Below are positions 8,282 through 25,482 of a DNA stretch of 42,951 bases, piece after piece; the first letter of the stretch is position 1; the number at the start of each line of letters is the position of its first letter. Made by a program: the position numbers and the translations under genes. Source of the stretch: Candidatus Nealsonbacteria bacterium DGGOD1a (GTDB lineage: Bacteria; Patescibacteriota; Minisyncoccia; Minisyncoccales; UBA5738); contig CP092821.1 in NCBI GenBank assembly GCA_022530585.1, positions 970,367 through 1,013,317 of the forward strand, in the 5' to 3' direction. The notes beneath the pieces were generated by a model. That model worked only from the letters and a program-made list of their open reading frames with translations, ran no database searches and had not been told where the DNA came from.

Positions 8282-8353
8282 CGCCGGCAACTGGGCTCGA
8301 ACCAGTGACAACTTGCTTAACAGCAAGCACTCTACCGACTGAGTTATGCCAGC
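8282..8353 (-). tRNA. tRNA-Asn (anticodon GTT)
   Basis: The cloverleaf has acceptor GCTGGCA/TGCCGGC, D stem ACTC/GAGT, T stem ACTGG/CCAGT with loop TTCGAGC, and discriminator G, as expected for Asn. The anticodon is GTT. The total is 72 bases, one shorter than usual: pairing CTTGC/GCAAG leaves a six-base loop TGTTAA, and the alternative GCTTG/CAAGT leaves eight. CCA is not encoded. The 130 bases between this gene and the TGC tRNA contain no gene I can see, only an 8-bp inverted GCTTATGT/ACATAAGC pair. Confidence 0.85.
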
Positions 8354-15575: not shown

Positions 15576-18260
15576 CTAATATTTACTCCATCCGTTAATT
15601 ACCTCTTGGAAATTTCGCGGTTTCTGGCTTTGCGCCTCCCAATCCTCTTGCTTGATATAAATCATTTGATATTTGGCGTTTTTCTGGTTAACATTCACAT
15701 CCGCACACCATTGTTCAAGGCGTTTTATTTTCTCGATGTCGTCCAAATCCTCGCGCCCCTTTGTTTCCACGATACAATATTCTTTTGGCGATACCTTAAC
15801 GATAAAATCGGGGTAATAATCAGAGATATTGCCATTGGCGTTTTTGTAATCAATCTTGAAGTGAACGGCAAAATAATTTTTCACATAAGAAATTATGTCC
15901 TCGCAATTTTCAAGAAAACCGGCAAATTCAAGCTCAAAGCGGCTATCGCCGACAACCTTATTGAATATGCTCTTTTGGGGCACAATGTACCCTTGATCCT
16001 TAACTACGAAAGGACGGCTTTTGCTAATCTTGATATAGTCGCGAATTTCGGCCTCGCCTTTATCAAGCACCGTCAGTTTATTGATTTCTTTCTTGAAAGT
16101 TTCAATAACGGCGCGGGTTGCTTCAATTTCAGAAAGATTGCGCAATGAATTCAAGTTTTCCAACTCAATCGGACTGTTGAATAAATAATTTTTGATAAAT
16201 TCTTTAACTTTTCCATAAAGAATATCATAGCCGCTTATAAGGCGAAGCTCTTTCATAATTATCTGCGCAAAATAGCCGATAGCGCTTTGATAATTCGGAA
16301 TAAAATTGCTGTCTAACTCTGTTTTATGGGCAATTTCACCGCTGGCAATATCGTGAAAAACGATTTCCCGCTTTTCCTCCTCGCTGAATTCTTTAATCTC
16401 GATTTTTTTATACTCAAAATTCACCGGCATTAATCCCGATAGATTTTTATATTCCCGGTAGATACGCGGCGTTAATACGGGAATCTCGATATCCAACTTT
16501 TCCATATCCTTCTTTAAGTTTTCCCGATCAATCTCAACCACTATCGGACACTTTGGCCCCGAACCTTCGCCCATTTGGCGATGTTCAAGCTCGACACCTT
16601 CGCTTTTAATCGATTCCACAAAATCCATGAAAGCATCTGTACCGACAACGCTCACAAATTCCGGTAAATCCGGGTCGCGATACATCCGGCGCAAACCACG
16701 GCCAAGCGTTTGCTCCGGCAAAATATTGCTTTTTGCCACATAAGCGCGAAGCCCGACAATTGTCGTTACATTTCGCACATCCCAGCCCTCTTTTAACATT
16801 AACACTGAAACAATCGCTTTGTGCGGGCTTTCCAAAGAATCGATCGCATTGGCAGCTTTCCGCAGCTCTTTCAACTCTTCTTCTTTCTTGCCCGTTGCGC
16901 TTTCCGAAATTTCACCATTGTCTTTCGTATGAATAACTAAAACCGCATCTTTCAAATCTTGATATGTGTTTTCAAGGTATTTGGCAACTTCATCGCAATT
17001 TTTCGTGTCATCGGTCATCACAAACAAAACTGCCTTTTTGCCAAGCTTTTTGTGTTCATCATAAACTTTCTTCCATTCTAAATATCCAAGATGAATATAA
17101 TCTTTGTATTTTTCGGTGTAATTTGATGATTTGTGTTCCTGTAATTTTGCGCGACTGGCTGAATCAGGAAGCACCGGATGCTTTACCACATTTTGATGGA
17201 TTGCCTCAACCAATGGATAATCGCTCACGGTTTGCACAAAAATCGACCCGTTGGTATGTTTCGGGGTAGCCGTAACATCAATTTGCAATGACAATGCGCC
17301 GCCTTTCATTTTTAAGCGGTTGTGGATATCGCCCACCGATTTAAACCAGCTCATCCGCGGATCGTGAATATGATGCGCTTCGTCGTTTAAAATCACCAGT
17401 CCGTCAACATTGCGAACAATATCGCCCAGATCAAGTTTAGATTCATTGGTCGCGCCCGCCGGTTTTTTACCCAAAAAATAATCAGCGGTGTTTGAATCGT
17501 CAAAGCTGGCGGCTTCGGTTGCGCCTTGATATACCCGATGAATATTTGTAAGAAATATATTGCCGGTTTTTCTAACCGTTCCGATTTCGTCCTGAATGTG
17601 AAGCGTCAACTGAAAATCATCGCGCCAATTCTGGCCGCAATAACCATTGTCTGGTAATATCGGATCCTGGAAAAAAATCTTTAATCCGTCAAAATCCGCG
17701 CGGATGCGATCAAGAACAATAATGTTCGGCGTAATGATTAAAAAATTGCGCGCCAAATCGGAATTTTGTTCGTATGTTTTGTGAAAATAACACCACGCCA
17801 GCATTAAGCTCAAAACCTTGGTTTTCCCCGCACCGGTGGCCATTTTAATCACATAGCGCGTCCAATCCTCATCAAACATTCCCGCGGAAACCGCGCCGGA
17901 ACTATCGTAGCGAATAAGATCGTATTTATCCCTCGATTTAGCAACTTCATAAAGCCAGATCACGGTTTCCACCGCTTCGCGCTGGGCAAAATAATATCGG
18001 AAAAGCGACAATTTGCCGTCAATATTTTCAACCGGATGTTCGGTTAAAAACCACCAATTAAGCAACGCCTTGCTGGTTTCGCTTGCACCGTTATAACCGC
18101 CAACGCGCCACGCCGCTACCTTCTTACGCAACTCGGCAACCAACGGCGGCAACAGCTTTCCATAATCTTTGTCGCGCAAATTTTCATCCGCCGGAAACCA
18201 CCGAATCGCCGGATCAAGAATTTCATAAGAATTTGTCGGAAAATTTTGATGTAATGCCAT
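15576..18260 (-). CDS. res: Type III restriction enzyme, Res (helicase-nuclease) subunit
   Basis: Res is the ATP-dependent translocase and nuclease of a type III restriction system and cuts unmodified DNA together with Mod. The 894 residues show Walker A ATGAGKTKVLSLM (about 141-153), a DEAH box in LNDEAHHIHDPR, VTATPKHTNGS, the motif V/VI region TLGRGLRRMYRDP, and a C-terminal PD-(D/E)XK nuclease (YPDFIVKVSPKEYCIVETKG). The start MALHQNFPTNSYE is well placed. mod lies 2.7 kb upstream rather than adjacent, separated by three other genes. A consensus promoter for a divergent ncRNA lies 38 bases upstream of this start. Confidence 0.95.
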   Translation of the reverse strand: MALHQNFPTNSYEILDPAIRWFPADENLRDKDYGKLLPPLVAELRKKVAAWRVGGYNGASETSKALLNWWFLTEHPVENIDGKLSLFRYYFAQREAVETVIWLYEVAKSRDKYDLIRYDSSGAVSAGMFDEDWTRYVIKMATGAGKTKVLSLMLAWCYFHKTYEQNSDLARNFLIITPNIIVLDRIRADFDGLKIFFQDPILPDNGYCGQNWRDDFQLTLHIQDEIGTVRKTGNIFLTNIHRVYQGATEAASFDDSNTADYFLGKKPAGATNESKLDLGDIVRNVDGLVILNDEAHHIHDPRMSWFKSVGDIHNRLKMKGGALSLQIDVTATPKHTNGSIFVQTVSDYPLVEAIHQNVVKHPVLPDSASRAKLQEHKSSNYTEKYKDYIHLGYLEWKKVYDEHKKLGKKAVLFVMTDDTKNCDEVAKYLENTYQDLKDAVLVIHTKDNGEISESATGKKEEELKELRKAANAIDSLESPHKAIVSVLMLKEGWDVRNVTTIVGLRAYVAKSNILPEQTLGRGLRRMYRDPDLPEFVSVVGTDAFMDFVESIKSEGVELEHRQMGEGSGPKCPIVVEIDRENLKKDMEKLDIEIPVLTPRIYREYKNLSGLMPVNFEYKKIEIKEFSEEEKREIVFHDIASGEIAHKTELDSNFIPNYQSAIGYFAQIIMKELRLISGYDILYGKVKEFIKNYLFNSPIELENLNSLRNLSEIEATRAVIETFKKEINKLTVLDKGEAEIRDYIKISKSRPFVVKDQGYIVPQKSIFNKVVGDSRFELEFAGFLENCEDIISYVKNYFAVHFKIDYKNANGNISDYYPDFIVKVSPKEYCIVETKGREDLDDIEKIKRLEQWCADVNVNQKNAKYQMIYIKQEDWEAQSQKPRNFQEVINGWSKY

Positions 18261-18477: not shown

Positions 18478-19944
18478 TTATTTGTTTCTTCCTTGCGCAA
18501 ATAAACTTCTTTCATCACCCATCGGCAATCTATATTTTACATTTCGCCTTGCACCCGTCCTTGGAATTATTGGCGTCAAAAGGCCCTGGCTAACCCATTT
18601 TCTAAATAATCTTGACACCTTTGAAGCATCATTGATATAGAGCAACTTTCGAGCCTCGACATTCGCGATGTATTTATTTCTATTTAAATAATCACAAACT
18701 TTATCCCATTCGCTCGGGGCTTTTTCGTTCAATAATATAACACGGACCGCATCTTGAATGCGAGGATACGTCAAGAAAATCGGCGGATACTTACTCGCCG
18801 CTTTCATTGTTTGGCGCATAGCTCGCACCCCCTCATTCTGATCAAGATTCGGCGGGTCGGGAAATTCCCGGAGATGCTTAACCAATAAATCATTTCTGTA
18901 ACCATGTGCTCTTTCTATGCCGATGTTTGATGGCGTAATATTTAAAGGCAACAATCCCGGACTCTCGATTTCAACGCGATCTTCAAAAATTTTAATCTCT
19001 ATGTCCCTTTTGGTATGATAATCGCGATGTATAATAGCATTAGTTATCGCTTCCTTAACCGCTCTTTCCGGTATCTGATAAGTGGTAACGAACCCCGATG
19101 GCACACGAATACCAGTCCGCAACAGCGTTAAAACATATTCATGGGTCTCGGTTATTTGTTTGGCAACCGGCCCGATAATGTTCTTTGGAGCCCCTATCAA
19201 ATTCAAAGTTTCTTTTATCGTTTCCAAACTGCCCTCGTACTGAAAGACTCGGACAGCGCATTTGGTATCCAATAGATCATTGGGAAACTCCGCAAATAAT
19301 AATACTGCCGCGCGCGTCGGATATAGCAAATCATCATTTCCTCTTCGAGCCAAGCCGGTTTTCTCTAAAACTATTTCAATGGGATCATCCGTTATCTCCC
19401 GCTTTTTGCGCCAAGAATCGTAAAACAGCGATTTTAAAAGCTTGAAATCAACCGAAACCAATTCTTTATCCGCCCGTTCAAATCCTTTAACATAGGCGAA
19501 ATGAACCAATTCCTGCGGTGCAAGCAGTTTGTTGCCTTTTTCCAAACGAATGTATGCGTGGCCTTCGAATGACCTGAAACCATCCCCAACCTTGGGGATA
19601 AACAAAAGCCCAATTCTTGCATTTTTATTCGGAACTTCTATAAGTTTAGGCGGCCAGATACTGGAAATCGGCGGTGAAATTTTCCTTAATGACCTCCCTA
19701 TCTCATCGTAAAGCTCAAGATTCTCTTCAATGCCGAAAATCCTATCCAATCCCTTCCGTTTGGTTTTCTGCGGATCATCAACGCCCAAGATTATCGTACC
19801 GCCATCGGTATTCGCCATCGCAACGATGGATTCTAATGTTTTATCGACACAATCATTTCTGCTTGCGCCAAGCCGTTTGAATTCCAGCGTTCGCGTTTCC
19901 GAAGGAATATTCAAGATATTTTCTATTAATTCTTTTTTTTCCAT
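18478..19944 (-). CDS. AlbA_2/GHKL ATP-binding transcriptional regulator-like protein
   Basis: A 488-residue protein of the RecG-like/AlbA_2 (Schlafen-AlbA) type. The N-terminal AlbA_2 domain shows ETRTLEFKRL and SIVAMANTDGGTIILGVDD (about residues 17-57). The middle GHKL-like ATPase has PERAVKEAITNAIIHRDYH (about 283-301) and EDRVEIESPGLLP. The C-terminal part looks like a winged helix (ASKVSRLFRKWVSQGLLTP). Such proteins are common beside restriction systems and other defence genes, where their role is not settled. The gene lies between mod and res. Its leader is a duplicate of the AbrB-NYN leader at 25276-25329, including iterons and the first antitoxin codons, so it may answer to the same repressor. 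The ATG at 19944 is kept. Confidence 0.85.
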   Translation of the reverse strand: MEKKELIENILNIPSETRTLEFKRLGASRNDCVDKTLESIVAMANTDGGTIILGVDDPQKTKRKGLDRIFGIEENLELYDEIGRSLRKISPPISSIWPPKLIEVPNKNARIGLLFIPKVGDGFRSFEGHAYIRLEKGNKLLAPQELVHFAYVKGFERADKELVSVDFKLLKSLFYDSWRKKREITDDPIEIVLEKTGLARRGNDDLLYPTRAAVLLFAEFPNDLLDTKCAVRVFQYEGSLETIKETLNLIGAPKNIIGPVAKQITETHEYVLTLLRTGIRVPSGFVTTYQIPERAVKEAITNAIIHRDYHTKRDIEIKIFEDRVEIESPGLLPLNITPSNIGIERAHGYRNDLLVKHLREFPDPPNLDQNEGVRAMRQTMKAASKYPPIFLTYPRIQDAVRVILLNEKAPSEWDKVCDYLNRNKYIANVEARKLLYINDASKVSRLFRKWVSQGLLTPIIPRTGARRNVKYRLPMGDERSLFAQGRNK

Positions 19945-20009
19945 ATCCTTGCTTCAATTATTTGACTGGCCAACTTGCGAACATTTTTCTCCTCAATTTT
20001 TCTGTTCAT
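19926..20009 (-). pseudogene. AbrB antitoxin N-terminal fragment (27 codons)
   Basis: ATG at 20007-20009 opens MNRKIEEKNVRKLA, matching the first 14 residues of the AbrB protein at 25105-25278 (MNRKIEDKNIRKLA) and preceded by the same AAGGAC-type ribosome-binding leader. After codon 14 it diverges (SQIIEARIWKKKN) and stops at TAA 19926-19928. It overlaps the AlbA_2 start (19944) in another frame. It may act as a leader peptide whose translation feeds the AlbA_2 start, or be only the scar of a leader capture. Confidence 0.75.
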
Positions 20010-20017
20010 ATTTCAGT

Positions 20018-20042
20018 CCTTATTTAAATACTGATTTAAATC
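20018..20042 (-). promoter_or_regulatory. Two-unit ATTTAAAT iteron operator
   Basis: Two 12-bp units (ATTTAAATCAGT, ATTTAAATAAGG) precede the AbrB fragment and the AlbA_2 gene. The same units occur three times at 25287-25329 upstream of the intact AbrB gene. Each contains the palindrome ATTTAAAT, a plausible site for an AbrB-type dimer. Confidence 0.7.
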
Positions 20043-20117
20043 CGTACTTCACCGATTTACAATCCCAGATAAAGAACTTCAAAAAATAACTCTGAAAAAA
20101 CTTAACATAATATCGTA

Positions 20118-20594
20118 TTATTTAGTTTCGCACTTTTCAATGATGCTCTCGGCTTTATTTTCGGCATTTATTTCGTTTTCGTCGATCCATTCATCTGCTT
20201 TAAATAATTTTCTAAAAAAATAAAAAGAAACAATTGCCCTATATAAAGTAATAAATATCGATTTTATCACATAAAAAGTAGAAATAACGGCAAGTAAAAT
20301 AACCGCTATGCGAATATAGTCAGATTTAATCCCAAAAGTATCGTGGAATTCACCTGTGAAAATCGCAATCCATACTGAGATAATACCGACCAACAGTCCA
20401 GTATTTAACTTATTTTCAATTGCTTTTGCAAAATGGATTAACTCTAATTTAAGATCCGACTGATTGATATGCAAATTTTTTGATTGACGATAAATAGCAA
20501 GTTGGTCCTGTTCTGGCGGCACAAAAACGCTACCGATATCATGTGCTGAATGGTTGCGCCCTCGCTGTGTTTGTTTTGAAACATTTTTGCCCAT
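20118..20594 (-). CDS. Hypothetical two-TM membrane protein linked to mod
   Basis: A 158-residue protein of no family I recognise. The N-terminal 80 residues are polar, with a Gln/Lys/Arg-rich start. Two strong hydrophobic segments follow: TGLLVGIISVWIAIF (about 76-90) and IRIAVILLAVISTFYVI (about 102-118). A third amphipathic stretch, TLYRAIVSFYFF, may lie at the membrane surface. The C-terminus is acidic (DEWIDENEINAENK). The start ATG directly abuts the stop of the preceding gene at 20595, so translation is coupled. Position after mod and one soluble protein suggests an accessory of the type III system, possibly a membrane effector; that is inference. Confidence 0.65.
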   Translation of the reverse strand: MGKNVSKQTQRGRNHSAHDIGSVFVPPEQDQLAIYRQSKNLHINQSDLKLELIHFAKAIENKLNTGLLVGIISVWIAIFTGEFHDTFGIKSDYIRIAVILLAVISTFYVIKSIFITLYRAIVSFYFFRKLFKADEWIDENEINAENKAESIIEKCETK

Positions 20595-20960
20595 CTATTT
20601 TATGTAAAAGGTGACCGATACCTTAAGAAATGTACTACTTGCGTCCAATGATTTCGCGTGAATAGAAAAAAAGATTTGCTTGCTGTCGATAGTATTAATA
20701 ATTGGTATTTTTTTCGTAGTCCCTGCGCCCAGCGTATTGTCAAAATTGACTAACGATATTTTAACTATTTTATTAATACCATCTCCTTCTATTTTTATTG
20801 GCAATTGACCGTTTATGTTGCTGTCTTTTGTAAATAAAAATTCGAATGAAAAACCGGCAATTTTATCAATAACCAATTTGTTCTCGTATATATTAAAATC
20901 ACCTGAATATAATATTTCATAATCGCCATCAAAAAATTTTATTTGCGATAAATCAATCAT
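20595..20960 (-). CDS. Hypothetical beta-rich protein linked to mod (DUF6864-like?)
   Basis: A 121-residue soluble protein, predicted as mostly beta strands (YEILYSGDFNIYENKLVIDKI, split into two strands; FEFLFTKDS; KIVKISLVNFDNTLGAGTTKK). The NFDN-LGAGTT turn and the overall pattern recall proteins annotated DUF6864, but I cannot confirm this. I chose MIDLSQIKFF (ATG at 20958-20960), two bases after the mod stop, over an upstream start inside mod. The gene is immediately followed by the membrane protein with no gap. Together they look like a mod-linked two-gene accessory unit. Confidence 0.65.
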   Translation of the reverse strand: MIDLSQIKFFDGDYEILYSGDFNIYENKLVIDKIAGFSFEFLFTKDSNINGQLPIKIEGDGINKIVKISLVNFDNTLGAGTTKKIPIINTIDSKQIFFSIHAKSLDASSTFLKVSVTFYIK

Positions 20961-20964
20961 ATTA

Positions 20965-23124
20965 TTATATTTTAATCTCAATTATTTTCATCGTATCGTT
21001 ACCGAAAATATCTACGACTTTTACCGCGATTTTGTGTTTCCCGGATTGCATTTCTTTGGCGACGCTCACCATTTCCAAGTTGCGGTCTTTTTTGGTGCGA
21101 AACGATTGCCATTCGTTTTCAAAGACGAAATCGCCGGTCCAAATTTCTTCAAATTCGGGAAGTTTGGCTTGGTGCGGATCAACCGTGCCGTCAATGTGCG
21201 GCTGGAGCGATTCTTTTTTCGGGACGCGGATAATTTCCTTTTTGCTTTCAAAGTCAAAATCAACCGCCCAATAATCAATCCAATCCGTCCATTCCTTTGT
21301 TAAATTTTCTCGCGTGGTTATTCCGTCTTTGTCTTTGGAAATTTTGATGATTTGGCCGTTTTCAACCAGCAATTTCTTGCCGCCGTTTTTTAAATTTTCC
21401 TCAACTTCCTTAATTGAATCCTGGTTATAGAAAACCGAAAAATCAGTCAGTTCAATCGAAACTAAATCGGCCTTGCCCCTCGTAGCTTTAGCGAAGTGGG
21501 GTTTTACTTCAATATACGAAACATCGTGGAATACCACTTGGTTTTTTTCAATCGCCCGTTTGTCAAAAACATCGCGCGGAATATATTTCAACGCCAAATC
21601 AATGCCCTTGCTTTTGGCAACTTCTTGGATATTCGGGAATAATCCCATTTCAAATTCAAACGCCAAAATATCGGCTTTGGTGATTTTCTTTTCCAAACAT
21701 TCGCCGATCACTTCCTCAACAAAAAGCCGCGACACCAGCAAATTTATTGGCCCGATGGCCACCAAACGCGAGCTTTTCTTGCCGTGAAAAGTTTTAAATC
21801 CGTCAAACGCTTCGGCCTTATAGGCCGACAAAACCAAAGAAACAAATTCTTTTTCTTTTTGCGCGATTTGCTGTTGGATTTCCTCCTCGCGTAAATTAGG
21901 ATTCACGCCGATATAATGCTGTCTTTCATACTTTCCAAGATTTAAAATCTCAAACGCCCGGAAATTCTTCCCATCTTTTTTCATCTGCCGCTGAACCCCG
22001 ATCATCCGTTTGCGCGTGGTGTGAATCGCAAACTTCCCCAAATCCGACCCAATCCACTTCCGTCCCAATTTCTCCGCCGCCGCCAGCGTAGTCCCCGACC
22101 CGCTAAAAAAATCCGCCACAATATCATTCTCATTTGATGATGCTAAAATTATATTCTCTACAAGTTTAGACGGTTTTTGTGTGGGATAGTTAGTAAAATC
22201 CCCATCGTTTTTCATAATAATTGAAATATCCCATGTATCCTCAAGCCGTTTTCCTTCTTTCATATATGTTTTATATTCCTTTCCATCTCTATAAGTAATC
22301 TTATACCGTCCAAAATTATCTTCCTTATCAAAACGATTTATTGCCCCCTCCGAATAAGGTGTAAAAAGATGATTGAATATTGTATTCTCTGATTTTGAAT
22401 AGCGAAGTATCGTATCATGTTTTCTTGAAAAATCCTTTTGAGGGGCCAAACTACCAGTATATTTCCAAACAATTTCATTTCTAAAATTCTCTTTATCAAA
22501 AATTTCATCCAAAACCAACCTCATATAACTATTTACTCGCCAATCGCAATGTACATAAATACTGCCATCGTCAGCCAACAAATCGCGCATCAGCGAGAGG
22601 CGTTCGTAAATCATCGCGATAAAACTGTCGGCACCTTTGCCCCAAGTGTCGCGATATGCCAATTCCTCCAAGACATTCGGTTTTTTGGTAAATTCCTCGT
22701 TACCAATTTCAATGTTCATTGAAAAATCCGCGCCCACATCAAACGGCGGGTCAATGTAAATCAGCTTAATGCCGCCTTGCGCTTCAATTTCCTGGCGCAT
22801 TGGCCCGTTTTTCAAAGACGACAGAATCAATTTGTTGTCGCCCCAAATCAGCTTGTTCGTCCACCCCTTCAATTGCCGTCCGCGCGAATCAAAATCAAAA
22901 AGCGATCCTTGCAACCGCGCCTCCTTTTCACTCCGCGGCTCGTCAACCTGTTCAATCGTCTGAAACGGCAAAACCACATTGGTCACTTCATTTGTTTTTC
23001 CGTTCCACACCAATTCCACCTCGCGCTTATCCTCAAACAATAAAAACCGGTATTTATCCGGCAGCGGCCTCCCCGCCTCAATCAATTTAACAATATCCCG
23101 TTTTTCATTATCGGAAAGATTCAT
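20965..23124 (-). CDS. mod: Type III restriction-modification DNA methyltransferase, Mod
   Basis: Mod recognises the asymmetric target and methylates adenine N6 using SAM. The 719-residue protein has catalytic motif IV DPPF (in [15 protein letters not shown], about residues 123-137) before SAM-binding motif [20 protein letters not shown] (about 330), the order of beta-class adenine methylases. An N-terminal segment ([22 protein letters not shown]) and the long C-terminal region are typical for Mod. The target recognition domain should lie between the motifs, but the site cannot be read from sequence. It is the first gene of the island transcript, with promoter block 23203-23274 about 75 bases upstream. 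res follows only after three other genes. Confidence 0.95.
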
Positions 23125-23202
23125 ATTTTGTTTATGGCTGCATTTCTCTACACCTTAACTCTTTTACGATCATTTTTCAATTCCAAAATCCCAAACTCTA
23201 CT

Positions 23203-23274
23203 CTCATTATAATGTCAAAAACCATGTCCGCAAAATAATTTTTCCTCTTTTGATACGCCAAAACATATAAAAAT
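23203..23274 (-). promoter_or_regulatory. Shared promoter block, copy 1 (upstream of mod)
   Basis: About 72 bases align at roughly 75-80% with 24235-24306 upstream of the DUF3800 gene. On the minus strand it contains AAAATTATTTTGCGG and a -10 TATAAT (23211-23206) with a -35-like TTGCGG (23233-23228), 16 bases apart. It predicts transcription from about 23199, giving mod a 75-base leader. The rest of 23125-23489 holds a palindrome (23318-23377) and a plus-strand promoter-like site, and no gene I accept. Confidence 0.55.
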
Positions 23275-24230: not shown

Positions 24231-24234
24231 AACT

Positions 24235-24306
24235 CTTATTATAATGTTGAAAATCGTGTTTACAAAATAATTTTCCCTTTTGCGATACATAAAAACATAT
24301 AAAAAT
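24235..24306 (-). promoter_or_regulatory. Shared promoter block, copy 2 (upstream of DUF3800)
   Basis: This is homologous to 23203-23274. The -35-like TTGTAA (24265-24260) and the -10 TATAAT (24243-24238) are 16 bases apart. Transcription should begin within a base or two of the DUF3800 ATG. Confidence 0.6.
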
Positions 24307-24395: not shown

Positions 24396-25097
24396 TTATT
24401 TGAGCGGATACCGCCTTATCCCGGTATAGAACTTGCCGAAATTGATGTATTTGTCCTTTATCCGATGCAACTCGTCGGCAACCATTTCCCGCACTCCCAC
24501 GATAAATATTTTCTTATTTTTAATTTTCAACCGCTCCAGTATGACCGATAAATCGCAATCGCCTGAAAATAACATTGCCGCGGTATTTTTTTCGGCGTCA
24601 TCCATCATATCCATCGCTATTTCCACGTCAAAATTGCATTTCGGTTCTTCTATCGTCTCCATTCCGCATTCCTTGATTTGATCAATCAATTCTTTTATTT
24701 TGCCGTTCACCGCCGCGTTAAACAAATTTCTTGTCGCTCTTTTAAAAAGCAACGCTTCGCCGGGAGTTTTTTTGATAAATTTCACCGGTTTGTCGCGCAA
24801 AATCGCGCCAGTCGCCAAAATCCGCTTCTTTAAAATATCCGATTTCAGCTTCGCGTCTTTGTCGTACTCGTTTTTACCGTAGTAAATTTTCACTTCTTTG
24901 ATGTTGGAGAATGAAAGTAATTGGGAAACAATATCCTTAATCCTGAATTTCCATCCCAAAACATCCTGCCAATGAAACATATTGGTTAAATCCAAATAAG
25001 CCGTAATCGCAGTTTCGTTCTTGATTCATTCCAAATAATCTTTCCTGACTATAAATTTGTTTAAAATATTTTGAGGAATTTCCATAATTTTATTCAT
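24396..25097 (-). pseudogene. NYN-domain ribonuclease (toxin-like) with in-frame TGA
   Basis: Reading from ATG 25095-25097 gives MNKIMEIPQNILNKF and then IVRKDYLE, a TGA at 25026-25028, and IKNETAITAYLDLTNMFHWQ continuing in the same frame for another 210 codons to TAA. The NYN/PIN-type nuclease features are AYLDLTNMF (first catalytic Asp), NFDVEIAMDMM and MLFSGDCDLSVILERL, then IFIVGVR. These are typical of LabA/DUF88-like RNases. Ribosomes could restart at TTG 24995, just before the catalytic Asp, but this would remove the first strand. TGG to TGA would fit the context. The AbrB gene sits eight bases upstream with AAGGAG overlapping its stop, so the pair is a toxin-antitoxin-like operon in which the toxin seems disabled or tightly down-tuned. 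Confidence 0.75.
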
Positions 25098-25104
25098 AAC
25101 GCGA

Positions 25105-25278
25105 TCACTCCTTCCAATCGGTTATCACAATGCTTCGGCCTTGTTTTTTGACCACCACTTTTTGTTTCTCGCGCCAGCCCAGCTCAACGATGAAGTCGCG
25201 CGGGATGGTTATGGCCAGCGAGGTTTTGCCGCTTTTGGCGAGTTTTCTGATATTTTTATCCTCAATTTTTCGGTTCAT
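25105..25278 (-). CDS. AbrB/SpoVT/MazE-like DNA-binding protein (antitoxin-like)
   Basis: A 57-residue swapped-hairpin DNA-binding protein, too short to be noticed by length alone. After MNRKIEDKNIRKLA it has the AbrB core GKTSLAITIPRDFIVELGWR, then KVVVKKQGRSIVITDWKE. It should dimerise and bind palindromic operators, here the ATTTAAAT iterons at 25287-25329. The start has a good AAGGA at suitable distance. The gene's last codons form AAGGAG, serving as the ribosome-binding site of the NYN gene. The pair fits an AbrB-type antitoxin with a nuclease toxin. A fragment of the same gene start is found at 19926-20009. Confidence 0.85.
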   Translation of the reverse strand: MNRKIEDKNIRKLAKSGKTSLAITIPRDFIVELGWREKQKVVVKKQGRSIVITDWKE

Positions 25279-25286
25279 ATTGAAGT

Positions 25287-25329
25287 CCTTATTTAAATAC
25301 TGATTTAAATACTTATTTAAATCAGTACC
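25287..25329 (-). promoter_or_regulatory. Three-unit ATTTAAAT iteron operator of the AbrB-NYN operon
   Basis: Three 12-bp units, each with ATTTAAAT, lie directly upstream of the AbrB ribosome-binding site. 25299-25326 is a perfect 28-bp palindrome with arms ACTGATTTAAATA and TATTTAAATCAGT. This is the arrangement expected for autoregulation by an AbrB-type antitoxin. Confidence 0.75.
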
Positions 25330-25406: not shown

Positions 25407-25482
25407 TGGTGCGCCCGACAGGAATCGAACCTGTAGTCTTCAGCTTCGGAGGCCAATATTTTATCCATTAAACTACGGGCGC
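25407..25482 (-). tRNA. tRNA-Arg (anticodon CCG)
   Basis: The cloverleaf has acceptor GCGCCCG/CGGGCGC, D stem GTTT/AAAT, anticodon stem TTGGC/GCTGA with loop CTCCGAA, and T stem ACAGG/CCTGT with loop TTCGATT. The discriminator is A and CCA is encoded, unlike the two tRNAs near 8.2 kb. The anticodon CCG reads CGG. It lies at the edge of the defence island, a common integration position, but no integrase was found. Confidence 0.95.

What the first reader, a model, noticed from the sequence alone, without database searches (positions are those of the whole stretch)
19926..20042. The antitoxin leader is duplicated in front of the AlbA_2 defence regulator
Iterons, ribosome-binding site, ATG and the first 14 antitoxin codons of the AbrB-NYN operon recur upstream of the AlbA_2/GHKL gene inside the type III RM locus, 5.2 kb away. 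The similarity stops abruptly at codon 14. The AlbA_2 start lies inside the resulting 27-codon frame. One AbrB dimer could thus control two defence genes, linking the toxin-antitoxin unit with the restriction locus. I know of no described case of antitoxin-leader capture of this kind.
Basis: partly seen in the sequence, partly recalled or inferred. Interest (0 to 1): 0.75.

Follow-up and report, generated by a model that had tools for sequence, protein, structure and literature searches.

The report
Leftover regulator-gene start before defence gene
The control region and first 14 codons of a small DNA-binding regulator gene do recur in front of a defence gene, but as one of at least seven scattered copies of that regulator's likely binding site in this genome, probably a shortened former regulator gene that may still put the defence gene under the regulator's control.

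Summary
An 83-nt block (25236-25318) recurs at 19967-20049 with 69/83 identities; shuffled windows reach 45 at most. It covers two 12-bp-spaced ATTTAAAT iterons, ribosome-binding site, ATG and codons 1-14, then similarity stops. (1) The 57-aa AbrB/MazE-type protein is not supported as an antitoxin: relatives of its NYN neighbour lack it, its own relatives have varied neighbours, and the NYN gene has an in-frame TGA. (2) The genome has seven iteron arrays, and two further AbrB starts without the AbrB body, one before a kinase, one behind a Cas12a CRISPR array; same-genus genomes scatter their own iteron variants. (3) Codons 1-14 at AlbA_2 differ at 9 nt but only 2 residues (P about 0.001), so the source was probably a once-coding AbrB paralogue, later truncated, not a copy of this leader. 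(4) AlbA_2 is a mobile module; twelve relatives lack the leader, and in two it overlaps mod. Best reading: a truncated AbrB gene whose operator may still let AbrB control AlbA_2. Binding and regulation are unproven. New variant of a known kind.

The parts
19926..20009 (-). 27-codon relic frame (MNRKIEEKNVRKLASQIIEARIWKKKN); codons 1-14 homologous to AbrB
20016..20041 (-). operator and ribosome-binding site of the relic: two perfect ATTTAAAT iterons 12 bp apart (20022-20029, 20034-20041) and AAGGA
18478..19944 (-). SLFN_AlbA_2 / HATPase_c_4 gene (488 aa) directly downstream; its start codon lies inside the relic frame, in the -1 frame
   Evidence: Pfam PF04326 E 1.5e-13, PF13749 E 3.6e-12
25105..25278 (-). 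abrB/mazE-like gene, 57 aa, ends with TGA
   Evidence: Pfam PF04014 25.6 bits against cut-off 24.7; homologues in 13 of 247 genomes of the order
25285..25322 (-). AbrB operator and ribosome-binding site: three ATTTAAAT iterons at 12-bp spacing
24396..25097 (-). NYN-domain gene with an in-frame TGA at about 25026-25028; three close relatives are uninterrupted there
   Evidence: Pfam PF01936 E 5.6e-15
20965..23124 (-). type III methyltransferase (mod)
   Evidence: Pfam N6_N4_Mtase; PADLOC MTase_III E 5e-118
15576..18260 (-). type III restriction subunit (res)
   Evidence: Pfam ResIII; PADLOC REase_III
20595..20981 (-). DUF6864 gene between mod and the relic
   Evidence: Pfam PF21732
20118..20594 (-). 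158-aa membrane protein gene between mod and the relic; weak PycTM match
   Evidence: PADLOC E 0.0015

Best explanation
The block at 19926-20042 is the 5' stump of an AbrB/MazE-family regulator gene. A former AbrB paralogue stood directly upstream of AlbA_2 and lost everything after about codon 14; its iteron operator, ribosome-binding site and start codon stayed. The intact AbrB encoded at 25105-25278 (inferred) still binds these iterons and represses transcription entering AlbA_2, and perhaps res, from the intergenic region; in the two closest relatives AlbA_2 is instead coupled to mod by overlapping codons. The site belongs to a genome-wide set of at least seven AbrB-type iteron arrays. Shown by sequence: homology, breakpoint, signature of coding evolution in codons 1-14, dispersed iterons, absence of the leader in AlbA_2 relatives. 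Inferred: that AbrB binds, that it represses, and that the order was AbrB gene first, truncation later.
For: Homology. Coding origin: 9 nt differences over 42 nt give only 2 conservative residue changes (D7E, I10V); 4 of 6 changed codons are synonymous, including AGA/CGC and CTC/TTG; P about 0.001 against random substitution. Other AbrB starts without a body: L017 (MNRKIENKSIGKLANRD*) and L018 (leader with broken frame, before a P-loop kinase). Iterons: seven arrays with an exact ATTTAAATNNNNATTTAAAT; at up to two mismatches 24 matches per strand against 6 for the reversed control; with the longer motif 7 against 0. Family rule: 10 of 16 scored AbrB homologues have a 10-14-bp tandem repeat within 75 nt before the start at P 0.01 or less, with different units. 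G001 and G002 have their own dispersed iterons. The 12 AlbA_2 homologues with upstream DNA lack the leader, and in L060/L061 AlbA_2 overlaps mod. The iteron/RBS part (33/38) is at least as well kept as the codons (33/42).
Against: No binding or expression data. Promoter scans near both sites are barely above shuffles. The AlbA_2 array has only two perfect iterons. No trace of AbrB codons 15-57 remains, so truncation in place is not directly seen. The codon test rests on 42 nt. No genome was found with an intact AbrB before AlbA_2. Some dispersed arrays in G002 lie behind genes, not before them. In one search the best-scoring repeat of L053 was not its iterons.
Confidence: 0.5

Rival explanations
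1. Leader capture: the leader of the AbrB gene at 25.2 kb was copied by recombination to AlbA_2 and brought it under AbrB control.
For: The AlbA_2 leader's best genomic match is this AbrB leader (90% over 67 nt); the two are 5.2 kb apart on one strand; a second duplicated upstream region exists nearby (23200-23274 and 24232-24306).
Against: Differences in codons 1-14 are mostly synonymous, P about 0.001: both copies seem to have evolved as protein-coding DNA after they split, which a captured non-coding leader would not.
Confidence: 0.2
2. Passive relic: the stump is a decaying remnant without present function, kept only because it is recent.
For: The coding part is dead; L018 has lost its start frame; the third iteron at AlbA_2 is degraded.
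Against: Iteron cores are kept in all four related leaders while the codons drift, L018 being the clearest; dispersed arrays exist in three genomes of the genus.
Confidence: 0.23
3. Translational leader: ribosomes start at the relic ATG, which has the better ribosome-binding site, and reach AlbA_2 by reinitiation or by -1 slippage at A_AAA_AAG where the frames overlap.
For: AlbA_2's ATG lies inside the relic frame with a very short Shine-Dalgarno spacing; a -1 slip at AAAAAAG would join the two frames (sequence).
Against: The A-run simply encodes an ordinary AlbA_2 N-terminus (MEKKEL; relatives MTKEEL, MNKKEL); no relative shares the layout.
Confidence: 0.05

Closest known systems
MqsA of E. 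coli, an antitoxin that also represses rpoS, csgD, cspD, mcbR (PMC4803016, PMC3874152)
   Same: a small autoregulatory DNA-binding protein with copies of its operator before unrelated genes
   Different: there the extra sites are operators only; here ribosome-binding site, start codon and N-terminal codons came along, and antitoxin function is unsupported
Omega repressor of plasmid pSM19035 with heptad-repeat arrays before several genes (PMC4803016)
   Same: one small protein, arrays of short tandem repeats, several target promoters
   Different: 7-bp repeats on a plasmid and another fold; here an AbrB/MazE-type protein, 12-bp repeats, dispersed on a chromosome
AbrB of Bacillus subtilis (PDB 1z0r, 1yfb)
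   Same: weak profile match (E 0.2-0.3); multi-gene regulator (own knowledge)
   Different: here only 57 aa, with a clear iteron motif before its own gene
C (controller) proteins of restriction-modification systems (PMC3874152)
   Same: small regulator acting on an RM operon through an operator
   Different: helix-turn-helix proteins of RM operons; here an AbrB-type protein outside the operon whose target is an accessory gene

Membership tests
AbrB/MazE (SpoVT-AbrB fold) DNA-binding proteins | matches the family profile | tested here: met
   PF04014 MazE_antitoxin 25.6 bits, cut-off 24.7
AbrB/MazE (SpoVT-AbrB fold) DNA-binding proteins | binds its own operator | not testable with these tools
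   iterons stand at the expected place in most homologues; binding not assayed
Type II toxin-antitoxin pair (AbrB-NYN) | toxin and antitoxin genes conserved side by side | tested here: not met
   NYN homologues L092, L093, L094, L110 and the distant L099, L100, L102 show no AbrB upstream; AbrB relatives have other neighbours
Type II toxin-antitoxin pair (AbrB-NYN) | intact toxin reading frame | tested here: not met
   in-frame TGA near 25027 ahead of the conserved first strand; L093, L094, L110 uninterrupted
Type III restriction-modification system | mod and res genes with the family domains in one operon | tested here: met
Repressor regulon with shared operator (MqsA-like, omega-like) | the same operator beside several unrelated genes | tested here: met
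   seven arrays with exact iteron pairs; longer motif 7 against 0 in the control; contexts
Repressor regulon with shared operator (MqsA-like, omega-like) | regulation in the cell | not testable with these tools
   no expression or binding data

The most novel reading that the evidence does not exclude
In this lineage of very small genomes a stand-alone AbrB protein with species-specific 12-bp iterons runs a small regulon enriched in defence loci (type III RM/AlbA_2, Cas12a CRISPR array, nucleotidyltransferase-HepT pair), which grows by leaving truncated copies of the AbrB gene in front of new genes.
Probability: 0.15. Interest if true: 0.7.

Novelty: new variant of a known kind. Interest (0 to 1): 0.45.

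Why it matters
If true, it shows a simple route by which a gene comes under new control: a regulator gene lands upstream, loses its body and leaves operator, ribosome-binding site and start codon behind. It would also define a small AbrB regulon in reduced genomes where regulation is barely studied, with operator and protein specificity changing together between related species.

Tried and rejected
AT-rich chance similarity: rejected (69/83 against 45/83 at most in 200 shuffles). Conserved AbrB-NYN toxin-antitoxin pair: rejected. Leader as an ancestral part of AlbA_2: rejected (absent in the 12 homologues with upstream sequence). Junction as leftover of the mod 3' end: looked alike by eye, but alignment with the mod end and with L060/L061 shows no convincing match. 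Relic frame ending in an AbrB C-terminus (WKK): judged coincidence, since it is forced by the AlbA_2 start codons. Presence in viruses: the exact 24-nt iteron pair is absent from viral contigs. Promoter scans were uninformative. The L017 similarity does not stop cleanly at codon 14 but fades to about codon 20, so a shared exact breakpoint in all copies is not claimed. No paper in the library combines Patescibacteria, AbrB and toxin-antitoxin.

Full report
Observation. The two leaders were compared directly. An ungapped 83-nt block, 19967-20049 against 25236-25318, is 83% identical, 69 of 83. Searching the same block in 200 Markov-shuffled windows never gave more than 45 of 83, and BLAST on the whole 1.16-Mb genome gives E = 8e-20. 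Counted from the ATG in 20-nt bins, identities are 17, 18, 19, 12 between -40 and +40 and background elsewhere. The AbrB leader has three perfect ATTTAAAT iterons, the AlbA_2 leader two. The 27-codon frame and the AlbA_2 start inside it (-1 frame) are also as described.

What the AbrB gene is. The 57-aa protein reaches the Pfam cut-off for MazE_antitoxin narrowly; a profile of ten homologues has B. subtilis AbrB among its weak PDB matches. Homologues occur in 13 of 247 genomes of the order. Most carry tandem repeats of about 11-12 bp shortly before the start; 10 of 16 scored loci have P 0.01 or less against shuffles, although for L053 the best-scoring repeat was not its iterons. The repeat unit differs from locus to locus. 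The neighbouring genes differ too. This looks like a stand-alone autoregulator.

Not shown to be an antitoxin. Four NYN homologues of 62-67% identity and three distant ones have no AbrB before them. The NYN gene in the window carries an in-frame TGA ahead of its conserved first strand, where L093, L094 and L110 read through. TGA is a stop here: AbrB itself ends with TGA just where its relatives end.

A genome-wide family. A search for ATTTAAATNNNNATTTAAAT finds seven arrays with exact pairs in the genome; at up to two mismatches there are 24 matches per strand against 6 for the reversed control, and a longer motif gives 7 against 0. Two arrays are the window sites. One (381721) is followed by ATG and MNRKIENKSIGKLANRD*, an AbrB start without the AbrB body, about 200 nt behind the last repeat of a Cas12a-type CRISPR array with cas12a, cas4 and cas1 upstream. 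One (595704) precedes a P-loop kinase, with the leader's start frame broken by a stop. Others lie before a nucleotidyltransferase/HepT pair (432136), before a secreted protein (491968) and in an intergenic region (963158). A second complete AbrB paralogue with a different repeat sits at 315951. Two same-genus genomes have two AbrB genes each and their own dispersed iterons.

Where the AlbA_2 leader came from. In codons 1-14 the two copies differ at 9 positions in 6 codons, yet only two residues change, both conservatively; under random substitution so few changes have P about 0.001. They therefore seem to have diverged as coding sequences. This favours a separate AbrB paralogue, later cut off after codon 14, over a recent copy of the AbrB-NYN leader. 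The test rests on 42 nt and is not conclusive.

Where AlbA_2 came from. Fourteen relatives of 57-78% identity were found in other lineages, most of them candidate phyla. Of the twelve with usable upstream sequence none has the leader. In L060 and L061 AlbA_2 begins inside the mod stop codon, next to mod and res genes only 25-34% identical to those here; in the others no relative of this mod or res was detected nearby. AlbA_2 is thus a module that moves between loci. Here a DUF6864 gene, a membrane-protein gene and the leader separate it from mod.

Mechanism. Most likely AbrB dimers bind the iterons and repress transcription into AlbA_2, replacing the tie to mod. Binding and repression are inferred from the arrangement and from how antitoxin-type repressors such as MqsA and the omega repressor work (PMC4803016, PMC3874152). 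A passive relic cannot be excluded, nor translation through the relic frame.

Verdict. A real, well-observed repeat; a partly right interpretation; a modest but interesting new variant of a known kind, operator sharing by a small autoregulator, with truncated regulator genes as the likely vehicle.

Noticed in passing
23200-23274 and 24232-24306: A second duplicated upstream region: 75 nt at 80% before mod and before the DUF3800 gene, with a TATAAT box; the only two copies in the genome.
   Followed up: partly
24396-25097: NYN gene with an in-frame TGA near 25027; close relatives are uninterrupted there.
   Followed up: yes
L017:417-3517 and L130:5926-11956: Cas12a-type CRISPR array (50 repeat copies counted in L017) with cas12a-cas4-cas1; a truncated AbrB leader lies about 200 nt behind its end.
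   Followed up: partly
20118-20594: 158-aa membrane protein with a weak PADLOC match to the Pycsar effector PycTM (E 0.0015), next to a DUF6864 gene, between mod and AlbA_2.
   Followed up: no
25407-25482: tRNA-Arg(CCG) directly upstream of the AbrB gene, at the edge of the defence cluster: a possible integration point.
   Followed up: no
8282-8353: ARAGORN reports a tRNA with a four-base anticodon (gtta), identity unknown.
   Followed up: no
L017 3690-3715 and L020 4110-4135: A shared TGTTTCGTAATYCAAARTAAAT motif just upstream of two iteron arrays, part of palindromic intergenic repeats.
   Followed up: no
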